DNA of 64,000 nucleotides. Source: Cheiracanthium punctorium. Lineage: Eukaryota > Arthropoda > Arachnida > Araneae > Cheiracanthiidae. Position 1 is the first letter of the stretch, and each line of letters begins with the position of its first letter. The notes beneath the pieces were generated by a model. The model had not been told where the DNA came from. It made no database searches and saw only the letters and a program-made list of their open reading frames with translations. A program made the translations under genes and the position numbers. Location: positions 1,240,001 to 1,304,000 of the forward strand of contig JAWZYV010012396.1 of assembly GCA_038373885.1 (NCBI GenBank), in the 5' to 3' direction. This document shows, piece by piece, positions 12,186-62,806 of the stretch.

Positions 12186-13329
12186 TCTATATAAATAAAA
12201 TTAGACTTTTGTCTGTACATTTCTTGGAATTCAAAAATTTTGCGATTTCTATCCGTTTCAAGCACCCGGGAATCCGATGCGACCCTCAAAAAAAAGTTTG
12301 TCTGTCTGTCGTTCTGTCATTCTGTCCGTGACGCTTTTTTTATTTAAGCATCACGTAAAGACGACTGAAGCGAATGATATGAAATTGGGTGTCATGATAG
12401 GTGGTCACTCAACTTAAAACACAGGCGTCGAATTTTTAAAAAATCTTGATTAGATTTTTAGATTTTGCGAAAATCGTTTCAAACTGCGTAAATTTGTGTT
12501 CGCACATCGCGTAATAACTGCAATGGTGAAAAAATGATATTTGGTGAAATGATAGGTGGTCACTCATCTTAAACTATAAGCATCAAATTAAAAAAAAATC
12601 GATCAGATTTCGAGATTTTGCGAAAATCGTTTAAAACTGAGTGAATCTTTGTTCCCGCATTACGTAATAACGACTAAAGCGAATGATATGAAATGTGGTC
12701 TCATGATAGATGGTTGCTCAGCATGAACTATAGGTGTCCAATTTTTTAAACATTTTTATTAGATTTTGAGATTTTGTGAAAATTCTCTCAAAATACGTTT
12801 ATATTTCTTCAAACATCACGTAATAATGACTAATACGAATGATACGAAATTGAGTGATATGATAGGTAGTTGCTAATCTTAATTTATAGGCGTTGAATTT
12901 TTAAAATATTTGGTTGAGATTTTGCGAAAATCGTTTTAAAATGCTGAAATTTTGTTCCAGCATCACGAAATAAAGACTGCAGGGAATGAAACGAAATTTG
13001 GTGATATGATAGGTTGTCACTCAACTTAAATTCTAGGCTTCAAATTTTTCAAAAATGTTGATTAGATTTTGAGATTTTTCGAAAATTATTTCAATATGTG
13101 TATATATTCGTTCGCGCATCAGATAATTACGACTAAAGCGAATGAAATTATATTACTTACTTACTCTCTAACCTGTAATATTTTCACAATGCATAAAAAT
13201 TATAATTCCGCTTTCTTTACTTTGGCAACATACTACATCCATTCTGTATACTCCTACAATGCTGACGAAAGTTCTTGCTTTTTGGAAATTTGCATTCACT
13301 GACCCGTCAAGGACGGATACTTCAGCTAG
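12186..13329 (+). mobile_element. Non-autonomous Helitron
   Basis: The 5' end is TCTATATAAATAAAATTAGA, directly after an A. The 3' end is CTAG followed by T, preceded by 9 nt and a 5-bp hairpin (CCGTC AAG GACGG, 13304-13316). This is the canonical Helitron arrangement: TC start, subterminal hairpin, CTRR end, insertion between A and T. The outer 5' part has GTCTGTCTGTCGTTCTGTC, then a tandem array, as in minisatellite-bearing short Helitrons of arthropods. No Rep/helicase coding is present. A neighbouring repeat copy at 13595/13596 preserves the uninterrupted target sequence. Confidence 0.85.
12350..13150 (+). repeat. ~155-bp tandem array inside the Helitron
   Basis: Diverged units recur with starts near 12350, 12507, 12660, 12820, 12965 and 13115. 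Each carries a CACGTAATAACGACTAAAGC-like word, then GAATGATATGAAATTGGGTG, GATAGGTGGTCACTCAACTT, and GATTTTGCGAAAATCGTTT. Units differ by many substitutions and small indels, so the array is old. The last unit is partial. Confidence 0.8.
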
Positions 13330-18218: not shown

Positions 18219-19597
18219 AGTGCACACTATAACAAAAAAACAAAAAAAATTGACGCCCCACGAAGGATTCGCTCGATTGTAATGAAATTTCGCATGCAAA
18301 GACATTCAAATCGAACATGCAAATGATTAAAATCTTAAGAACTTTGAAAGAATAGCGGAAGTGCCTGCGCATTGGAACTGCGCATTCAGCAGGTACATAT
18401 AGGGAGCGATTCAAGTCTCTGTAACAGTAACTCGCCGAAAGATTCGTGCGCATTACGAGCAGATGCCGGATAGTGAAAGAGGCCGTGCGATCGGACAGAA
18501 AGAGGCTGGTTGGACGAATCGAAGAATCGCTGCGTCGAAGCGATGCAGCTATTAGACGATTCTGGCAAGAGTGGGTCAACAACGGTAGATATCAGCGTCG
18601 AAATGATAGCAGTTGACGGAGGGCCACAACAGAACGGAGGGACAGAGCGATTGTCAGAGCAGCTGTCACAACACCGGATTCGTCGCTATCAACTATCCAC
18701 CGTGTGACCCGCACACGTGTATCCTACATGATCCTCCACAGACGGTTGAGAGAGCGAAATTTACATTCGCGCCGACCGTTACGCCGGTCGCCTCTCATGC
18801 CTGTACACCGTCAAGTCCGATTACTGTGGTGCCGGGCTCGAAAAACGTGGAACTGCGCTTACTGGGCACGTATAGTCTTTTGTGACGATTCCTGTTTCCA
18901 AATGTGTCCTGATGACAACCGCAGACATGTCTGGAGACGTCCAGGGCAGAAGGGGGATCCTGCCCTGACTATCGTACGCCACACAGGCCCACAACCAGGT
19001 GTTAGGGTCTGGGGTGCCATCTCTTTTAATAGCCAGACCCCTTTAATAGTCATTTCTGGCACATTGACAACACAGAGGTACGTTGAGGACATCCTACGAC
19101 CGGTTATATTACCTTTCCTTTTCGACATCCTGGACTTAATTTTCAACACGATAATGCCCGGCCGCATTCGGCACGTGTTGCTATGAATTGTCTTCAAGCT
19201 TTCCCTGTACTTCCTTGGCCAGCTAGTTCGCCTGATCTCTCTCCCATAGAGCACATTTGGGACGTTATGGGAAGGCGATTGCAACCATCTCAAAATGCTG
19301 CCAATTTAGGCCAACAGTTGGAGACAATTTGTCTAGAAATTCCACAGGACACCTTCCGGGAACTTTATCAGTCTGTGCCACACCGGGTGACAGTTTGCAT
19401 CGAGGCTAGAGGTGGACCAACGCCTTATTGACTTCCTCCCTTTGTAATGGTCAAACTCTACAATAAATCATGCAATTGTTCGAAAATTTTAATCGTTTGT
19501 TTTTTTATGGATGCTCTTTACATCCACCAATTTTTATCGCAATCGGACAATTCCTTCTTGGTGCGTCTTTTTTCTTTTTTTTTCTTATAGAGTGAAT
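18219..19597 (+). mobile_element. Tc1-like element with decayed transposase
   Basis: TA dinucleotides at 18217-18218 and 19598-19599 flank long imperfect inverted ends of about 85 bp. Shared words are CACTATAA-type start, A-rich run, GACGCCCCACGAAGGA against GACGCACCAAGAAGGA, and CGATTGTAATGAAATT against CGATTGCGATAAAAATT. A single transposase gene fills the 1379-bp interior. Structure, TA target and coding content fit the Tc1 group. The exact outer bases are uncertain by a few nucleotides because of the A-rich run. Confidence 0.9.
18463..19431 (+). pseudogene. Tc1-like transposase, disrupted
   Basis: The chosen start is ATG at 18463, which begins an N-terminal helix-turn-helix segment (EAGWTNRRIAAS, then LRRSDAAIRRFWQEWV). 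Between those two pieces the frame breaks in a way that fits an 8-bp deletion between GCTGCGTC-type direct repeats. A TGA at 18614-18616 replaces a likely CGA. The DDE domain follows: first acidic residue in FCDDSCFQM (18884-18886), second in FQHDNARPH (GAT 19150-19152), third E in SPDLSPIEHIW (GAG 19249-19251), with 32 residues between the last two by my count. A +1 shift just before 19141 separates the first from the others. The C-terminus ends EARGGPTPY at a stop. It would cut and paste its own element into TA sites, but this copy cannot encode an active enzyme. Confidence 0.9.
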
Positions 19598-33085: not shown

Positions 33086-33746
33086 ACTTTCCGAACATGT
33101 ACCATGTTAGGAAAGTATTGTAATCATGAAACATTCGACTTCGAGATTTTGGTGTATTAACACGTTTTGAGGTCTTCTGGATTCATTTATGCTATTTTTA
33201 TGAGATGTATATATGTATGTGTGTATGTGTGTGTATATGTGTGTATGTGAGTGAACACGATATCTCCTAAACGGGGCATTCGATTGAGCTCAAATTGGGT
33301 ATATATGTTATAAACCACCGTCGCAAGACCGGTATTGATTTTGGCGTGCATAGGATTTATAGTTTTTCTACAGGGCTACAACAAAGATTTCTTTTACATT
33401 ATTGCCTATGGGGGGAAATTTTTGTAAGAGCGCTAGCGTTTAAACGGTACATTCGATTGAGCTCGAATTGGGTATATATGCTATAAACCACCATCGTAAG
33501 ACCGCTGTTGATCTTAGTGTGTATAGGACTTATAGTTTTTCTACAGGGCTACGACAAAGATTTCTTTTACATCATGGCATATGATGAGAAATTGTTGAAA
33601 GTGCGTTAGCGTTTAAACGTTCGCATTCGATTGAGCTTCAGTTTGGTATATATGTTTGAATTATTCATCGATTAAAATTTATTTAAATGCTTGGTAATGA
33701 TCTTTGAGTGTTCGGAAGTGTTCGGATCTTTGAGTGTTCGGAAAGT
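33086..33746. mobile_element. Candidate element with 173/174-bp repeats
   Basis: A 12-bp word ACTTTCCGAACA at 33086-33097 recurs inverted at 33735-33746, bracketing about 660 bp. The left end forms its own hairpin (TACTTTCC...GGAAAGTA, 33085-33117) and a GT-rich stretch follows (about 33212-33250). Units starting at CATTCGATTGAGCT (33277, 33450, 33624) then repeat with spacings 173 and 174 bp; the third unit is truncated. Frames inside, such as 33295-33486, come from the repeat. A minisatellite-bearing non-autonomous transposon is likely; class unassigned. Confidence 0.55.
33277..33660 (+). repeat. 173/174-bp tandem repeat, ~2.2 units
   Basis: Shared words in order are CATTCGATTGAGCTC, GGTATATATG, TATAAACCACC, TATAGTTTTTCTACAGGGCTAC, AAAGATTTCTTTTACAT and GCGTTTAAACG. 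Confidence 0.85.
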
Positions 33747-42379: not shown

Positions 42380-42940
42380 AAAGGTATTTTACGTATGTAT
42401 ACATTACATCCCAAGGGCGTATCCTCTGAGCCCTTAGTGCATATGTGAAACCCGATTACTGTATTAGTTTCTATAAAAGTATTAGCCTAACAGCCTTGGA
42501 GCCCCACCAGTGACCGAGTGCATAGCGCTCTGCACTGGTACAGAAGGAGCCCGGTTTAAAACCAGGTCACGTCCGCCGACCTAACCGTTCGGAGTTTTCT
42601 GTGGTTTCCTTCGAAACTTAGCGTAAATACGGGTTAAGAGGCTTTAGAAAAACCTTTATGGGAGACATCCCACCCCTCTGCCTAGAGCCCACATATAGCT
42701 AATTGGCCGTAAACCCACAGTACACAACACCTTTGGTTTTGGATAAAGTTATTACTTTATTTAGTGAAAGAAAGGATTAGGTAACAAATCATTCACTTTT
42801 AGTACATTCAACATTTACTCGTAACAAACTAAAAAACCGTTTAGATGTGAATACACAGCGGCGTATCCTCTATGCTACCAAGGCATTCTGCTAAATCCGA
42901 TGACCATGACTAGTGATTTTCATAAAAGTGTTAGTATAAT
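42360..42940. repeat. Diverged direct duplication interrupted by a SINE
   Basis: The left copy (about 42360-42490) and right copy (about 42820-42935) share AACTAAAA, GGCGTATCCTCT, CCGAT and ATAAAAGTNTTAG in the same order. The SINE lies between them. The right copy runs into the 275-bp satellite at the shared AAAAGTGTTAG word. Confidence 0.6.
42490..42735 (+). mobile_element. tRNA-derived SINE, plus copy
   Basis: GTGCATAGCGCTCTGCACTGG leads into a degenerate B-box GGTTTAAAACC (42553-42563). The family body follows (CACGTCCGCCGACC, GTGGTTTCCTTCGAAACTTA, TAAATACGGGTTAAG, TAATTGGCCGTAAACCC) with a 3' CACAACACC end. It is the same family as 39425-39665. The B-box has lost the CG of the canonical motif, so it is probably not transcribed by Pol III. 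Confidence 0.8.
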
Positions 42941-44027
42941 AATCTGGAATTGATATACATCAATCTTTCCAATCAGAGAAAACATCTCTGAAGAGAAATC
43001 AGAAAAAAATTTCCCTCGGTATCGATGAATTCCGTTTCGATACTGGAGTGAGATAGTCCAACTCTAAAACTCAAGTATACTCTAATAATAAACTGCTGTG
43101 AAAACACAAGGACGTGACGGACGATTTTTTGTTTGTAGTTTGTGTAAATGTGTCCCAAATTAACACAAATAATAATATAATATCTCTAAGAACATGGAAA
43201 AAGTGTTAGTATAATAATCTGGAATTGATATACATCAATCTTTCCAATCAGAGAAAACATCTCTGAAGAGAAATCAGAAAAAAATTTCCCTCAGTATCGA
43301 TGAATTCCGTTTCGATACTGGAGTGAGATAGTCTAACTCTAAAACTCAAGTATACTCTAATAATAAACTGCTGTGAAAACACAAGGACGTGACGGACGAT
43401 TTTTTGTTTGTAGTTTGTGTAAATGTGTCCCAAATTAACACAAATAATAATATAATATCTCTAAGAACATGGAAAAAGTGTTAGTATAATAATCTGGAAT
43501 TGATATACATCAATCTTTCCAATCAGAGAAAACATCTCTGAAGAGAAATCAGAAAAAAATTTCTCTCGGTATCGATGAATTCCGTTTCGATACTGGAGTG
43601 AGATAGTCCAACTCTAAAACTCAAGTATACTCTAATAATAAACTGCTGTGAAAACACAAGGACGTGACGGACGATTTTTTGTTTGTAGTTTGTGTAAATG
43701 TGTCCCAAATTAACACAAATAATAATATAATATCTCTAAGAACATGGAAAAAGTGTTAGTATAATAATCTGGAATTGATATACATCAATCTTTCCAATCA
43801 GAGAAAACATCTCTGAAGAGAAATCAGAAAAAAATTTCCCTCAGTATCGATGAATTCCGTTTCGATACTGGAGTGAGATAGTCTAACTCTAAAACTCAAG
43901 TATACTCTAATAATAAACTGCTGTGAAAACACAAGGACGTGACGGACGATTTTTTGTTTGTAGTTTGTGTAAATGTGTCCCAAATTAACACAAACAATAA
44001 TATAATATCTCTAAGAACATGGAAAAA
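42928..44027 (+). repeat. Four-unit 275-bp satellite, ABAB
   Basis: Units start at 42928, 43203, 43478 and 43753, all exactly 275 bp and nearly identical. Units 1 and 3 share CGGTATCG and AGTCCAAC; units 2 and 4 share CAGTATCG and AGTCTAAC. Unit 3 alone has CTCTCGG and unit 4 alone CAAACAAT. Each unit holds a 7-bp inverted repeat GTATCGA / TCGATAC. The 61-aa minus-strand frame in every unit is conserved only because the units are young copies; it has no signal peptide or domain that I recognise. Confidence 0.97.
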
Positions 44028-45221
44028 GTTTAAACTTTTAAAAAAGGAAATATAAAGGAAAAAAAGTAAAGCGAATACTAATTAGTAACGTTGGATAGCT
44101 ATCTGGAAAATTCCACGTCTAAAGGAAATATGATCGACTCTAACTGCAACGTATGATGCATATTACTTCATGCTGGTCAGAAATTTGCAAACGAGCTGGT
44201 GAAGCACTGAGGTCCATTCCTCTTGCAATGCCAACTGCAGTTTCGGAATCATGTGATGGTGTCTGCTGACTTACTGGCAAGCAATTCCCTAAAGAATTTC
44301 CTTGTTAGATTAGGTTTGCATTTATTGACCTTGACGGTGAATCGATGAGTTTAGTATCTCAACTCCTAAATCTCCGATACAGCCAGTGTATCATGAGGTA
44401 CGGCAGAGCTGTGCATATAATGAAAATACGGATCCATATCTCTTCAAGAAAGACGCATGTGAGCAAGTAGAATCTCGGTAAAATAGCTAGTACCAATGAT
44501 TGAACTACGTCTTTGGAAGATATGATGGTCAGTCAGTACAGGTGCCATTCCTGATCTCTCTCCAAACGAGAACTCTCGAATCCTGAAACAGGTCTCTTTC
44601 AATGATGTTGAAGAAGTTATTGCATGTTCCATGATATGCATTCATCCAGAAACGCCAATAGGAGTAAAACTGTTTTCATTTGTAAGTATTTCTGTACCCC
44701 ATATGCCCCGATCCAATTCCTGTGTTCATCTGTATATACAGAGAACTCCTCCACGCAATAATGCTACTACTATTTTGGTCGTACTGCAAATTAACCACCA
44801 CCTTCCAGTCTCCTGACCTCTGTGAGGCATATCAGTTGTCCAGAAGTCAGTGCGTGAGTCTAGAGTGATTTCTTTGTTCCTTCTTGAAAGTAGGGAAATA
44901 TAGAACCTACTATTAAACCCTCAAGCACACAACTGCTTTTCTATTATATGAAATGCTCTAAACTTTCGAAATAATGCAATTTAAGATCATATTGAAGCAG
45001 CAACTTATATCAACAGGAAAGGTGTCGATTAAATTGCTGTACACATTGCAATACCTTTCATAAACTTACTGAGCGTACACAAGCAACCTGTTTTATTCTC
45101 TTAGACACTTGATCAGTAGGCCATGCTACGTAAGCATGCTATATCTTCCCCGACCCTAGTCAACCTCCTGATTTCTCTTTTGAAACATTCTGTTCTCTAA
45201 TAATCAGATCTCTAATAACAA

Positions 45222-57639: not shown

Positions 57640-58744
57640 TACAATGATTTGGAACTCACTACAATCCAGGATCAATAAGTGTTCTTGAAACTAACCAACA
57701 TTTTTCTTATTATTTACATTATATAGATCAACGGGAAAATATTTCGCTAATAAAATATTTTTTCAAATTTTGATCACAAGATGGTGCTTTTCAGAAATTC
57801 CGTATGAAAATTAGTCAAACCTATAAAAACACTTGCAGTTAGAACGTGTAAATCATTCTGCGTTTCATTGTCATCATTAATCGTGTTCTTACAAAAGAAA
57901 GATCGAGTTTTACTGTTAAAACTGTTTTATCAGAACGACAGTAATAGCTTAGCTGCACTGCGTGAATATCGTCATTTAAAGGGGACTGCAAAAAGGACCT
58001 ATGTCAGAGAATGGTTTGAAGAAGATGATTATGTAATTTGAAGAGACTGGAGATGCAGCCATGAAGAGGGTGGAAACAGGTTGCTGATGAAACTGTCGAA
58101 GAAGTCGCTACTGCTGTAGTTGAAAGAGTTTGCAGTTCTAACTAATCCTCAGCAAGTGCTCGATCGGTGTCACGTAAGTTGGCGATTCCACGGTAAATAA
58201 TTTGAAAAATTCTACTATCCGTTTTAAAATGGTCTCCGTATAAGATCCACGTGGTGCAAGAGTAGAAACATCAGGACCTCCAAACAAGCTTTGAATTTGC
58301 TTGCATATTTTTAGCGATAATGGAAGTTGATGACGTGTGACCTTGGAAAATTCTGTGGTCAGATGAGACCTTCCTCCTTTAGATAGAGCCTTGAATAATC
58401 AAAATTGCCGAATATACTGTGTTTCCCCTCCTAATAACCTGCACCAACAACCATTCATTCTGATTGGGTGACTGCATGGTGTGGATTTATTGCCGATTTT
58501 ATCCTCGAACCGTTTTTCTTAGAAACTCTCTCACTGCTAAGTCTTAAAATGTGCTGTGCCACGAGTGCTCGGTATAGTGAAATACTTCAACAGCAGGTCA
58601 TTCTTGCTTTACAAGAACAGCAATGTTTCCAAACCACTGTCTGTCCCAGACAGCACATAAGCTTAAATCAAGCTTGACATTTCCTTGAATTTGACGTATT
58701 AATGCACGCTTGACAGTTCAACTCATTTTAAGCTGGCAGCAAGC

Positions 58745-59788
58745 CAGTGGCGGCCCGTGGTCAAAACTGTTAGTGCAGCCGGAAGCATATGAGCCCCCCC
58801 CCCCTTTCCACCGGACAGGATTGGAAAATCTTTGTTACTGAATTCGAAAGCTGGCGGATTAAGCCCTCACCGAGGAAAAAAAAAATACATAAAAAATGTA
58901 AGAGATCCTATTTTACTTCCATAAAATGGACATAAATTTCAACCAGCCGCTCTTATCCTCAAAATTGCATTAATCCGTGTCTGATTCGAAGTTTCCTTAG
59001 AATTTTCTTTCGTAACGATAACTTGAGAAGAAAAGAAAAAAAAAAGAAAACTTACTTATTTTTTATAAGTCAAATCAATCCTTCTTTCTTTTAAACTTGC
59101 GAATCGGTCAGTGATGCTCTCATAAAAAGGCGTTGTTTTAATTCAGATATCCATAATTTTAAAAGCTCTTTAAAATTTCCCATGTTTAAAGAATTTTCTC
59201 GCTCGCCATGTCCTCTAAATGCCAGTTCTTGCTTACTTAAAAACAATACTGCTTTGATGGGTAATTGTCCATTCATAAGCGTCTATTCAGACTTACCTTC
59301 TTGATAAATTCAGAAATATAAAGTCGAGAGTTTTCCAAACATATATAATCCTTACCCCTTCCCTCACTTCTCGTCTGAGCCAATGAGTTAGTCGAGTTCT
59401 CAAGTTCAGCCGCCGTTAAAAAATCTTCCATCGGCTGTATCAGCTGCATACTCCCTATGCCGGAGAGGCTGCTTACGTAGCCGTTGTCATGGCAACGGTG
59501 TTGCCAATTTTCTTTTCAGCGCTCTGGGCTGAACCAAAGATTTTCCCAATTGAATTGCGGGAAGATTAAAGTGCTTTTTTTCTGAATGAGCGATTCGGCC
59601 ACAATACTTTTTTTTTTGTTGTTGTTTATTTTTTGTTTTTTTTTTCGGAGATTTTTTTAATTTCCGTAGGAATTCCACTATTCTAATCTGAATTTAGGAA
59701 AATTAGTAGAATAAATTATTTTAAAGTATGTGCTGATACTTTCAAGTGCAGCCCGGCTGTACTTGCTGTATCCCACGAGCCGCCACTG
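58745..59788 (-). mobile_element. hAT element nested in the unclassified element
   Basis: CAGCAAGC flanks both ends exactly (58737-58744 and 59789-59796). The inverted ends are CAGTGGCGGCCCGTGG on the left and, inward from the right, CAGTGGCGGCTCGTGG, followed by a shared GTACAGCCGG / GTGCAGCCGG word. An 8-bp duplication with CAG ends defines a hAT. It lies within 100 bp of the left end of its host and separates that host's subterminal AAGCTT cluster in two. Confidence 0.95.
59091..59276 (-). pseudogene. hAT transposase fragment (DUF4371-like)
   Basis: The minus-strand peptide contains LFLSKQELAFRGHGERENS followed by NMGNFKELLKLW. The pattern (K/A)(K/Q)QxLAFRGHxE..N.GNF.ELL is characteristic of ZMYM1/ZBED-like hAT transposases, in the region just before the catalytic domain. 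Only about 60 residues remain. The catalytic core and the C-terminal dimerisation domain are absent within the element, so this is a deletion derivative. It ties the surrounding CAGTGGCGG-ended element to hAT independently of its ends. Confidence 0.85.
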
Positions 59789-59983
59789 CAGCAAGCTTGC
59801 AGGAGTCAAGTTGAATTGTCAAGCTTAAATACAGCTTGATTTAAGCTTAACAAGTAATACTAGCTTGATTTTAGCTTTCAAAGTGAGCAGTGATGGCGCC
59901 ATCTGTGAAAGAGAATGGACATTAATTGTCTAGCGTCCTCAAATTTGCCGAAAGTTCGTAAAAGATGTGTTTTATTTTATTAC

Positions 59984-60055
59984 CAGTGCCATATTACCGG
60001 CAGGGCAAACGTTGCAACTGCCCAGGGCCTACAGATTTTAGGGCCCAAAAATCTT
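59984..60055. mobile_element. Solo hAT-type terminus
   Basis: CAGTGCCATATTACCGGCAGGGC, then GCCCAGGGCC and TTTTAGGGCCC, follows the same layout as the right end of the hAT at 37004-37708 (CAGGCCCTGATTACCGCACAGG, GGCCTAGGGCCCCC, TTTTAGGGG). The opposite terminus was not found, so this is probably a truncated copy. Confidence 0.45.
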
Positions 60056-60428
60056 GCATCTTACACTTTTGTAGTTTTAAAATAAAATTGCAAAGGATAA
60101 AAAAAAATTCAGAAGTTAAATAATTTTTTTAATTATAAAGTATGAACAATGAAAATAATTCAAATTTACATTTGTATAAATTAATTTAAACTTATTTTTA
60201 ATTCTTCGAAATGCTCTATATGGATATAGCATAACAATATGTAGGAAAATAACTAACCACATTTGTAAAGAGAATTTTTAGCGTTAAAAAATAGCAAAAT
60301 TTTTTAATTATTTGTTATTTTAAGAAATATTTACAAAGATTACTAAAGTGTTTGTATTCCATACATGTTAGCAACTGTGATATAGCATTTCGAAGTAACG
60401 TTTAACTATCTGTTTCTTTGATTTCAGA

Positions 60429-60457
60429 TTACTTAACACAAAATTTGTGTTAAGTAA
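60429..60457. repeat. 29-bp near-perfect palindrome
   Basis: TTACTTAACACAAA and its exact complement are separated by one A. It lies in the interior of the unclassified element. Confidence 0.9.
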
Positions 60458-60792
60458 GTAAATCCATTCTATATTTCCAAATATGGAAATTCTTCAAAAT
60501 AAAATACAATTATACTACGAAATTGATTTCAAAATCAGTCGTTTGTCTCGATTTTGGCCAGCAGTACTGCTCATGAGTGTTGCGGTACTGAAAGTTTTAA
60601 AACGTGTGCTGCTCTTAAGTTTATATTATGTTTATTTCCCTATTAGTAGAGTCTCTAAATCACACATAACATTATTTTAATTTTGCTGCATCCCATGGAA
60701 AAATAAAAGAAACAAATAACATATCGCCCACTTATCAATCTGGCGAGAAAACGGCGTGATAAGTCACTTAAAACTTAAGTCATAGCTGCACA

Positions 60793-60985
60793 AGGCTTAG
60801 TGGCTGAAAGGATAGCGTGCTCGACTGCTAACCCAAAGGTCCCGGGTTCTATTCCAGCCACGAACACTCGATGGAAACAGATTAAATTAAATTAAATTGA
60901 AATTTCAGCGTAGAGGGGGAAAATGCGTGGGAAAGTAAAATATGTGGGGCGAGTTCGCCGACCGGCACCCCCACGCTTAAATCTA
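60793..60985 (+). mobile_element. tRNA-derived SINE-like segment
   Basis: TTAGTGGCTGAAAGGATAGCG has A-box character, CTGCTAA looks like an anticodon loop with GCT, and GGTTCTATTCC is a degenerate B-box. The T-stem does not pair cleanly and no acceptor stem closes, so this is not a functional tRNA gene. Downstream are (TTAAA)n, GTGGGGCGAGTTCGCC and CGACCGGCACCCCCACG. It differs from the other SINE family in this window. Confidence 0.6.
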
Positions 60986-62185
60986 TTGATTAAAACTAAC
61001 ACTCATTTATTGATTGAATTTCTTATCGGCCGATTTAAATCCTTTTACGCCAAAAAATACTCATTCAAGACAATAATTTGTAAATGCCTCAATTCGCCCC
61101 AGCATCTCCCCATCCGCTATATTCTATTTAACTCATTTTCCGCAAAAATCTTGTCTACTTGAGTATTCTGTCTGTCTCGTCTCCCCCACGACCCATATCC
61201 TATTACTGTCGCCGTCACGTGACCAAGCTCTTAACGGATAACGGTTCATAGTAAAAAACGCGGCCAGGCCATAGTTGTGTGTGTATTCCGCTGGTGATAG
61301 TTTTATGTTATATCCGAATACCAAATGCATCTTTTTCATGCAGAGTTGTGAAATAAATTCAGCCTAGATACGGAGGAGATGCTTTAGGTAATGATTTCGC
61401 TTTAATGACATAGTTTCTTACGATTGGATTATAAAAAGCTGTTGTAAAACAAATGAAGTTAGGATATCTCCACCCAAAGTGAGTAAGTAGTATTTTACCT
61501 TTTTCATGTCAATAAATTGGGTTGCTTCTTTAATTAAATCTCACAGCTGGTTTAACCATGATTGCATTTCTGTATTCTGACTGTACTGTGAATTCGTTTT
61601 ATAACGAGAGACTATAGTGAAATTATATTCTATTTATTAAAAAAATACTTTTTTATAGTGTATTAAGATATATGTAATGTATTTGCCTTGATTTAAAATT
61701 TATTTTCTCGGGCTTATAATAATAGATTACAGCTCTGATAATAAAAAAATGAAGAAAACGAATCATTCAATATATTAATCAAAAACAGCAAATTTTAATT
61801 AAACACCTTTTTTCTAGCTTAAAATAATAATCTTAATTGAGTACAGATATGTTAATTTAAAAAGGGCGGATTTTGCAAAAACGCTCATTCTATAGCTTAA
61901 ATAATAATCATAATCTAGTACAGTTATATTAATCAAAAACGGACAGACACTCCTCATTTTTGATTATTATTTAGCCTAAATGGAGCTGTTGTAGAATGCA
62001 CAAAAATTGAGAATTTTTAGCTCCATTGATTTTTGTCGATTAATTGAGGAAACTTTACTCAATCGGGAGAATGGCTGTTTGAAGTCAAAAATTGAGTAAA
62101 AATATACTCCGTTTGATTATTATTTTACTCAGTAGATTTAAGCGTGCCGTGTATTTAGGAAATTTTTTTTAGGAAAATTTTTTAA

Positions 62186-62345
62186 GCTTGAAATGTCAAG
62201 CTTGATTCAAGCTTGAAGTGTCAAGCTTAATGCAAGCTGGGCAAGTGTAAACTAGAACACTTGATTCAAGCTTGCATTAAACTTACACGCTTGAAATTTT
62301 CAAGCTTAATTCAAACTTATTGACTTGATAAATCAAGCTTGCTGC
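62186..62345. repeat. Subterminal AAGCTT cluster
   Basis: Seven AAGCTT words in 160 bp, several within TCAAGCTTGA or TCAAGCTTGC palindromes, next to the right terminus of the unclassified element. Related words (CAAGTTTGATGCAAGTTTGC) reach the terminus itself. Similar words flank the left terminus. Such clusters often bind the element's own transposase. Confidence 0.85.
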
Positions 62346-62433
62346 AAGTTTGATGCAAGTTTGCTGTGCTGTCTGGGGTATGCAAAATGGAACAACTCCC
62401 CACATTTAGCGTCAAATCAAAAAACTGCTTCGT

Positions 62434-62636
62434 CAGAGCCTTATTATCGCATGGGCAAATCGGGACTTTGCCCAGGGCTCCCCGTATCGAAAGCCCCTCC
62501 CCCAATATCAAATGTTGTTCTGAAATATTCTCTTTTTTTTTAATCAAAATTTTATGAAAAGTAAAACAAATTTCATAGATGGGGGCCCCCAAATTTATCC
62601 ATGCCCGGGGCCCTAGTTGGTCATAATCAGGCTCTG
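62434..62636. mobile_element. 203-bp hAT MITE with perfect 8-bp TSD
   Basis: TGCTTCGT flanks both ends (62426-62433 and 62637-62644). The ends read CAGAGCCTTATTATCGC and, inward from the right, CAGAGCCTGATTATGACC. The mariner reading ...KKLLR before it continues at ANFDQDCVIP after one copy of the duplication. The ends belong to the same family as the hAT at 37004-37708 (CAGAGCCTGA...). Confidence 0.95.
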
Positions 62637-62806
62637 TGCTTCGTGCTAACTTTGACCAGGATTGTGTAATACCCAGAGCTTTTTCTGACGCCTAGCCTCC
62701 TCGCTCATCTGACTTAAACCCCAGTGATTTCTGTTTGTGGGGATTCCTAAAAGATCGCGTTTATGAAAGAGTAATTAACACCTGAATTGAAAGCCAGCAT
62801 TGCACG

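What the first reader, a model, noticed from the sequence alone, without database searches (positions are those of the whole stretch)
58645..62377. A 3.7-kb transposon of no superfamily I can name
It has 13-bp termini CCCAGACAGCACA, AAGCTT-word clusters at both subterminal zones and a 2-bp GT duplication proven by the interrupted transposase frame. TA, TTAA, TWA and 8-bp targets are all excluded. Subterminal clusters and a 2-3 bp TSD suggest a CACTA/EnSpm-like mechanism, but the termini lack CACT.
Basis: partly seen in the sequence, partly recalled or inferred. Interest (0 to 1): 0.8.

Follow-up and report, generated by a model that had tools for sequence, protein, structure and literature searches.

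The report
Abundant CACTA-like transposon, swollen by insertions
This is one copy of a very common, gene-less jumping DNA of about 1.5 kb that two other jumping elements later landed in; its ends and its two-base footprint fit a known animal branch of the CACTA transposons, so it is most likely a new member of a known kind rather than a nameless superfamily.

Summary
The transposon is real and its borders are right. The 13-bp end occurs 16,409 times in the 2.53-Gb host genome (reversed control: 9). Of the 40 best places for the right end, 34 (window included) gave both ends; 28 of these 34 carry an exact 2-bp duplication, of 11 kinds, and five have paralogous empty sites without a gap at the junction. 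AAGCTT sits only in two terminal zones: 5 left, 7 right, 0 between. The natural size is not 3.7 kb: the copy is about 1.5 kb plus a hAT-like insert (58745-59788) and a CAC...GTG insert with its own 2-bp duplication (60972-62146). None of the 34 copies has a stop-free stretch over 122 aa. 'No superfamily' is not supported: CCC-starting ends plus 2-bp duplications are published for animal TRC elements of the CACTA/EnSpm superfamily. The genome holds CACTA-type (Transposase_21) genes, but none was found between such ends in the limited DNA fetched, so the helper transposase is inferred. Most likely a new non-autonomous TRC-type family, mobilised in trans.

The parts
58643..58644 (.). left target-site duplication GT
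   Evidence: frame of the interrupted gene continues with one GT
58645..58657 (+). left terminal inverted repeat CCCAGACAGCACA
   Evidence: 16,409 exact copies in own genome versus 9 for the reversed control
58658..58744 (.). left subterminal AAGCTT zone, first part
   Evidence: first 100 bp of the element at 99% identity in the 39 other places scored, the best of 1,459 candidates
58745..59788 (.). later hAT-like insertion (ends CAGTGGCGGC, 8-bp TSD CAGCAAGC at 58737-58744 and 59789-59796)
   Evidence: a common family on its own: 39 of the 40 best places match only from this part on
59797..59880 (.). left subterminal AAGCTT zone, second part
59881..60971 (.). non-coding interior shared with other copies
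   Evidence: alignments to L010, L011, L041, L049, L051; longest stop-free stretch listed within the element 82 aa
60972..62146 (.). later 1,175-bp insertion with ends CACGCTTAAATCTA (14 bp perfect) and 2-bp TSD CC (60970-60971, 62147-62148)
   Evidence: absent at the same point in 22 distinct other places (27 locus rows, five being the same place twice)
62182..62364 (.). right subterminal AAGCTT zone
62365..62377 (-). right terminal inverted repeat
62378..62379 (.). right target-site duplication GT
57880..58644 (+). left part of the interrupted transposase pseudogene (mariner type by recalled motifs)
   Evidence: no Pfam match to its pieces
62380..62780 (+). right part of the interrupted pseudogene, itself cut by a hAT-like MITE at 62434-62636 (TSD TGCTTCGT)

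Best explanation
A non-autonomous cut-and-paste DNA transposon of the CCC-ended (TRC) animal branch of the CACTA/EnSpm superfamily, about 1.5 kb in its natural form. Proposed working: a CACTA-type (Transposase_21) transposase made elsewhere in the genome, or a partner protein of it, binds the arrays of AAGCTT words in the last about 200 bp of each end, pairs the ends, cuts at the CCC...GGG tips and joins them to target DNA with cuts 2 bases apart; gap repair leaves the 2-bp duplication. Shown: ends, 2-bp duplication with empty sites, terminal arrays, thousands of end sequences, lack of long open frames. Inferred: the transposase class, the binding role of the arrays, mobilisation in trans.
For: 28 of 34 copies with exact 2-bp TSDs of 11 kinds, null 12.4%. 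Paralogous empty sites without a gap at the junction for 5 of 34 copies. In-frame join at the window site. AAGCTT 12 in the zones and 0 between, 0 of 2000 shuffles as high; in the majority of 32 copies 5 in the first 130 bp, 8 in the last 210, 0 between. 16,409 exact end sequences, control 9. Published CCC core plus 2-bp TSD for animal TRC elements: Aedes CCCAGTCAAC, equal to ours at 8 of 10 positions, and Hydra CCCAGCCAACATTGAC, equal at 9 of the first 11. Transposase_21 genes in the same genome, 10 places, all over the cut-off (two checked again); the nearest named relatives of one are proteins of the spider Araneus ventricosus. TnpA of plant CACTA elements binds subterminal repeats (PMC8195511, passage).
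Against: No autonomous copy was found: 0 of the 34 copies has a stop-free stretch over 122 aa, and none of the 10 Transposase_21 places shows these ends in the DNA fetched. That DNA is limited: 2.0-3.4 kb for six places, 6.0 kb on C2731, 6.9 kb on C11265 and on C9213, 10.5 kb on C5122; single 3-mismatch look-alikes occur in some of the short loci, no pair. The ends miss the Repbase rule of 10 of 11 equal positions (9 of 11 with Hydra, 7 of 11 with Tribolium; rule in PMC4455052). Among random CCC-starting ends 1.5%, 2.6% and 7.4% match Aedes, Hydra and Tribolium as well, so the likeness beyond CCC is weak. SmTRC1's own end beyond CCC was not compared (its sequence is in a figure). A 2025 survey says most lineages of this clade end 5'-CA..TG-3' (PMC12730594, passage). 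6 of 34 paired copies lack a 2-bp match (L024, L036, L037, L039, L044, L053); in L036 and L039 the pairing itself is doubtful.
Confidence: 0.75

Rival explanations
1. A non-autonomous element of an undescribed DDE superfamily that happens to share CCC ends and 2-bp duplications with TRC elements.
For: No autonomous partner found; likeness of the ends to TRC elements beyond CCC is modest.
Against: The traits that could be measured (CCC core, 2-bp TSD of free sequence, short TIR, subterminal arrays) are already those of TRC or CACTA elements, and CACTA-type transposase genes are present in the genome.
Confidence: 0.13
2. ISL2EU or another PHIS-type element (2-bp duplication).
For: ISL2EU also makes 2-bp duplications (PMC4482050, passage).
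Against: ISL2EU duplicates AT within A|AT|T and usually starts with GG; here 5 of 28 duplications are AT and the ends start with CCC. A genome search for DDE_Tnp_4 did not complete, so the presence of such transposases is untested.
Confidence: 0.05
3. A Tc1/mariner-type element, TA being the commonest duplication.
For: TA is the most frequent of the 11 dinucleotides, 9 of 28.
Against: 19 of 28 duplications are not TA; the window copy sits at GT with an in-frame join.
Confidence: 0.01
4. A piggyBac-type element, because of the CCC start.
For: piggyBac and IS1380 share 5'-CC..GG-3' termini (PMC10045372, passage).
Against: piggyBac makes 4-bp duplications (TTAA is recalled); 0 of 34 copies match at 4 bp.
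Confidence: 0.01

Closest known systems
TRC elements (Transposon Related to CACTA): SmTRC1 of Schistosoma mansoni, TRCs of Tribolium castaneum and Aedes aegypti (PMC1636069)
   Same: TIR starts with CCC; 2-bp TSD (7 of 14 SmTRC1 copies, three shown with paralogous empty sites); Aedes TIR CCCAGTCAAC equals ours at 8 of 10 positions
   Different: SmTRC1 carries a Transposase_21 gene; those elements are 4.5, 5.2 and 9.2 kb with TIRs of 54, 27 and 10 bp; subterminal AAGCTT arrays are not described there (the word subterminal does not occur in the text)
Spongebob_HMa / EnSpm-4N1_HM of Hydra (PMC4298943)
   Same: TIR CCCAGCCAACATTGAC, 9 of the first 11 positions equal; 2-bp TSD; placed by its authors with the TRC elements of CACTA
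   Different: 5.8 kb, 441 copies, remains of coding; here about 1.5 kb and 16,409 exact end sequences
Plant CACTA/EnSpm elements (such as LsC1 of lettuce)
   Same: short TIR plus subterminal repeats that TnpA binds; mostly non-autonomous copies (PMC8195511, passages)
   Different: ends CACTA, 3-bp TSD
ISL2EU (PHIS superfamily)
   Same: 2-bp TSD
   Different: TSD is AT in A|AT|T, ends usually start GG (PMC4482050, passages)

Membership tests
TRC branch of CACTA/EnSpm | TIR with CCC core | tested here: met
   CCCAGACAGCACA in the window and 16,409 exact copies in the genome; feature from PMC1636069
TRC branch of CACTA/EnSpm | 2-bp target-site duplication, single in the empty site | tested here: met
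   28 of 34 copies, 11 dinucleotides; empty sites for 5 of 34
TRC branch of CACTA/EnSpm | Transposase_21 gene in an autonomous member with these ends | tested here: inconclusive
   10 Transposase_21 places in the genome, none with these ends in the DNA held; flanks only partly fetched, 2.0 to 10.5 kb a place
TRC branch of CACTA/EnSpm | Repbase annotation rule: same TSD length and at least 10 of the first 11 end positions equal to a classified element (a shortcut, not a defining trait) | tested here: not met
   9 of 11 with Hydra Spongebob, 8 of 10 with Aedes, 7 of 11 with Tribolium; rule in PMC4455052 (passage); only these three ends were compared
CACTA/EnSpm in general | clustered subterminal repeats at both ends | tested here: met
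   role of such repeats from PMC8195511 (passage)
Plant-type CACTA | CACTA termini and 3-bp TSD | tested here: not met
   CCCAG termini; 0 of 34 3-bp TSDs
ISL2EU | AT duplication in A|AT|T and GG start | tested here: not met
   5 of 28 duplications are AT; ends start CCC
Tc1/mariner | TA duplication | tested here: not met
   19 of 28 duplications are not TA
piggyBac | 4-bp duplication (TTAA recalled) | tested here: not met
   0 of 34 at 4 bp
hAT | 5-8-bp duplication | tested here: not met
   0 of 34 match at any length from 3 to 9 bp; the nested insert 58745-59788 is the hAT-like one
PIF/Harbinger | 3-bp TWA duplication | tested here: not met
   0 of 34 at 3 bp

The most novel reading that the evidence does not exclude
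The family is moved by an undescribed transposase lineage, not a Transposase_21 enzyme, that reads arrays of the word AAGCTT (often within the palindrome TCAAGCTTGA) in 200-bp terminal zones and cuts 2 bases apart; the CCC ends shared with TRC elements would then be convergent.
Probability: 0.13. Interest if true: 0.65.

Novelty: new member of a known kind. Interest (0 to 1): 0.3.

Why it matters
It adds a very large CCC-ended family in a genome that looks like a spider's, with clean 2-bp duplications and sharply bounded terminal arrays. Part of it seems recent: the 39 other left ends scored, the best of 1,459 candidates, are at 99% identity. If a TRC transposase is its helper, it supports the 2006 suggestion that CCC takes the place of CACTA at the ends of animal members, and it is a good substrate for testing what such a transposase recognises. 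It also shows how nested insertions can make an ordinary 1.5-kb element look like an unclassifiable 3.7-kb one.

Tried and rejected
Autonomous partner. (a) A pair of ends 6.9 kb apart on contig C85 turned out to be ends of two copies of the same non-coding family (L070). (b) Places without a second end in the stretch held (L040, L042, L045, L048 among the six): the only frames of 130 aa or more are 134 aa in L040 and 196 aa in L042, both more than 4 kb from the right end; neither has a Pfam match over a cut-off. The 5.5-kb pairing in L039 has no stop-free stretch over 105 aa. (c) Transposase_21 loci: the copies on C11265 and C9213 share 3.8 kb whose edges carry no inverted repeats; in the 10.5 kb on C5122 the best CCC pair agrees at 11 of 13 positions but has no matching 2-bp flanks.

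Collections. No match in plasmids; 0 in viral contigs; 12 contigs of bacteria and archaea carry a loose form of the end pattern, which I took as chance and did not examine. Rfam at gathering scores and ARAGORN gave nothing in the window. The first 12 letters of the end occur in two papers, both on heart disease by their listings; that is the only text search for the sequence. A CACTA end consensus recalled from Yuan and Wessler 2011 could not be checked: the paper is not held and a text search for it gave three unrelated papers.

Papers, as seen: PMC1636069 outline, abstract, sections 5 and 6 and passages; passages only of PMC10045372, PMC9179366, PMC12730594, PMC4455052, PMC11304231, PMC4482050, PMC4298943, PMC6004678, PMC8195511.
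Full report
What was checked. The window lies in an unnamed 2.53-Gb genome at C7349:1240001-1304000. The ends CCCAGACAGCACA are exact at 58645-58657 and, inverted, at 62365-62377. The flanks are GT and GT. Joined with one GT, the interrupted pseudogene stays in frame across the site. Its pieces gave no Pfam match, so 'mariner type' rests on recalled motifs.

The size is a composite. Inside the left zone sits a hAT-like insert, 58745-59788, with inverted ends CAGTGGCGGC and the 8-bp duplication CAGCAAGC. When the left border was searched against the own genome, 39 of the 40 best places matched only from that insert on, so it is a separate common family. A second insert, 60972-62146, has ends CACGCTTAAATCTA and duplicates CC. 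The same point is without it in 22 distinct other places (27 locus rows found with a 12-base probe at up to 2 mismatches, five of them repeats of one place), and alignments to L011 and L041 overlap by exactly 2 bases there. With both set aside the copy is 1,504 bp, like its relatives: 30 of the 33 other paired copies are 0.9-1.8 kb.

The family. The right end (62150-62377) has 342 candidate places; the best 40 were scored, the 39 others at 89-97% identity. The left 100 bp has 1,459 candidates; of the best 40, the 39 others are at 99%. The exact 13-mer occurs 8,246 times forward and 8,163 reverse, the reversed control 5 and 4 times.

Target-site duplication. Of the 40 right-end places, 34 gave both ends (up to 2 mismatches in each) and 6 did not (L040, L042, L045, L048, L049, L051). 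28 of 34 have an exact 2-bp duplication (TA 9, AT 5, TC 3, AA 3, TT 2, and GT, GG, GA, CT, CG, AG once each); the rate between flanks of different copies is 12.4%. None of 34 matches at 3 bp or more. The six misses are L024, L036, L037, L039, L044 and L053; in L036 two copies abut and the nearest pair was taken, and the 5.5-kb pairing in L039 is doubtful. For 5 of 34 copies the DNA then held contains a paralogous empty site with no gap at the junction (L010, L026, L034, L038, L043). Two of these partners are only 72-75% alike overall with gaps elsewhere (L026, L034), and L010's partner lies in its own flank; the other 29 copies had no partner in that DNA.

Terminal arrays. In the copy with inserts set aside AAGCTT occurs 5 times in the first 200 bp, 7 times in the last 205 and never between; 2000 dinucleotide shuffles give a mean of 0.41 and a maximum of 4 in the two zones. 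In the majority of 32 copies (L036 and L039 left out) it occurs 5 times in the first 130 bp, 8 times in the last 210 and never between. Conservation in 50-column bins is 0.96 at the left tip and 0.96-0.98 over the last 250 columns; the interior runs from 0.78 to 0.96.

Coding. The longest stop-free stretch in any of the 34 copies is 122 aa (median 79). The stretches were not scanned against protein families.

What it is. DeMarco and colleagues (PMC1636069) described animal TRC elements of the CACTA superfamily whose ends begin with CCC and whose duplication is 2 bp (7 of 14 SmTRC1 copies, three with paralogous empty sites): SmTRC1, a Tribolium element (CCCTAGTAGCACC...) and an Aedes element (CCCAGTCAAC). 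A Hydra element, CCCAGCCAACATTGAC with 2-bp duplications, was filed there for the same reason (PMC4298943, passages). Ours equals the Aedes end at 8 of 10 positions, the Hydra end at 9 of the first 11 and the Tribolium end at 7 of 11; among random CCC-starting ends 1.5%, 2.6% and 7.4% do as well. Against this, a 2025 survey gives CA..TG as the usual ends of the wider clade (PMC12730594, passage). ISL2EU, the other 2-bp group considered, duplicates AT in A|AT|T and usually starts with GG (PMC4482050, passages), which is not what is seen.

The missing piece is the transposase. The own genome has 10 places over the Transposase_21 cut-off out of 11 candidates, with frames up to 833 aa; the longest scores 35.3 bits against a cut-off of 28.6. 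It has 299 relatives in the protein collection, 120 of them listed; the nearest named ones are from the orb-weaving spider Araneus ventricosus at 42-46% identity. That suggests a spider host, an inference. None of the 10 places has CCCAGACAGCACA ends in the DNA that could be fetched, 2.0 to 10.5 kb a place. So membership is supported by ends, duplication and architecture but not proven by a gene.

How it most likely works. Shown: end sequence, 2-bp staggered insertion, terminal arrays, high copy number, lack of long open frames. Inferred: a CACTA-type enzyme acts in trans; it or a partner binds the AAGCTT arrays as TnpA binds the subterminal repeats of plant CACTA elements (PMC8195511, passage); it cuts at CCC...GGG and joins with a 2-base stagger.

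Verdict: a real, correctly bounded transposon; most likely a new, abundant member of a known kind; interest moderate to low.

Noticed in passing
window 60972-62146: A 1,175-bp insertion with ends CACGCTTAAATCTA...TAGATTTAAGCGTG and a 2-bp CC duplication, confirmed by empty sites; CAC...GTG ends with 2-bp duplications are described for CACTA-type MITEs (PMC6004678, passage), so a second CACTA-like element may be nested in the CCC-type one.
   Followed up: partly
window 58745-59788: hAT-like element of a common family (2,606 candidate places; 39 of the 40 best match only it).
   Followed up: partly
window 62434-62636: A 203-bp hAT-like MITE (ends CAGAGCC, TSD TGCTTCGT) that also cuts the interrupted pseudogene.
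   Followed up: no
L036:1501-3202: Two copies of the family abut tip to tip (...TGTGCTGTCTGGG|CCCAGACAGCACA...) with no host base between and no matching outer duplication.
   Followed up: no
window 60799-60870: A tRNA-like stretch seen by eye inside the shared interior; ARAGORN does not call it.
   Followed up: no
window 42924-44029: Tandem array of four 275-bp units, 98% matches; further arrays at 12349-13145 (156/309 bp) and 33268-33654 (173 bp).
   Followed up: no
window 18617-19431: Overlapping frames of a Tc1-type transposase (HTH_Tnp_Tc3_2 over its cut-off; DDE_3 just under it).
   Followed up: no
L058 and L059: Transposase_21 (CACTA-type) genes, a frame of 833 aa in one copy; the two copies are 98.4% alike over 3.8 kb, without inverted repeats at the edges of the shared stretch.
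   Followed up: partly
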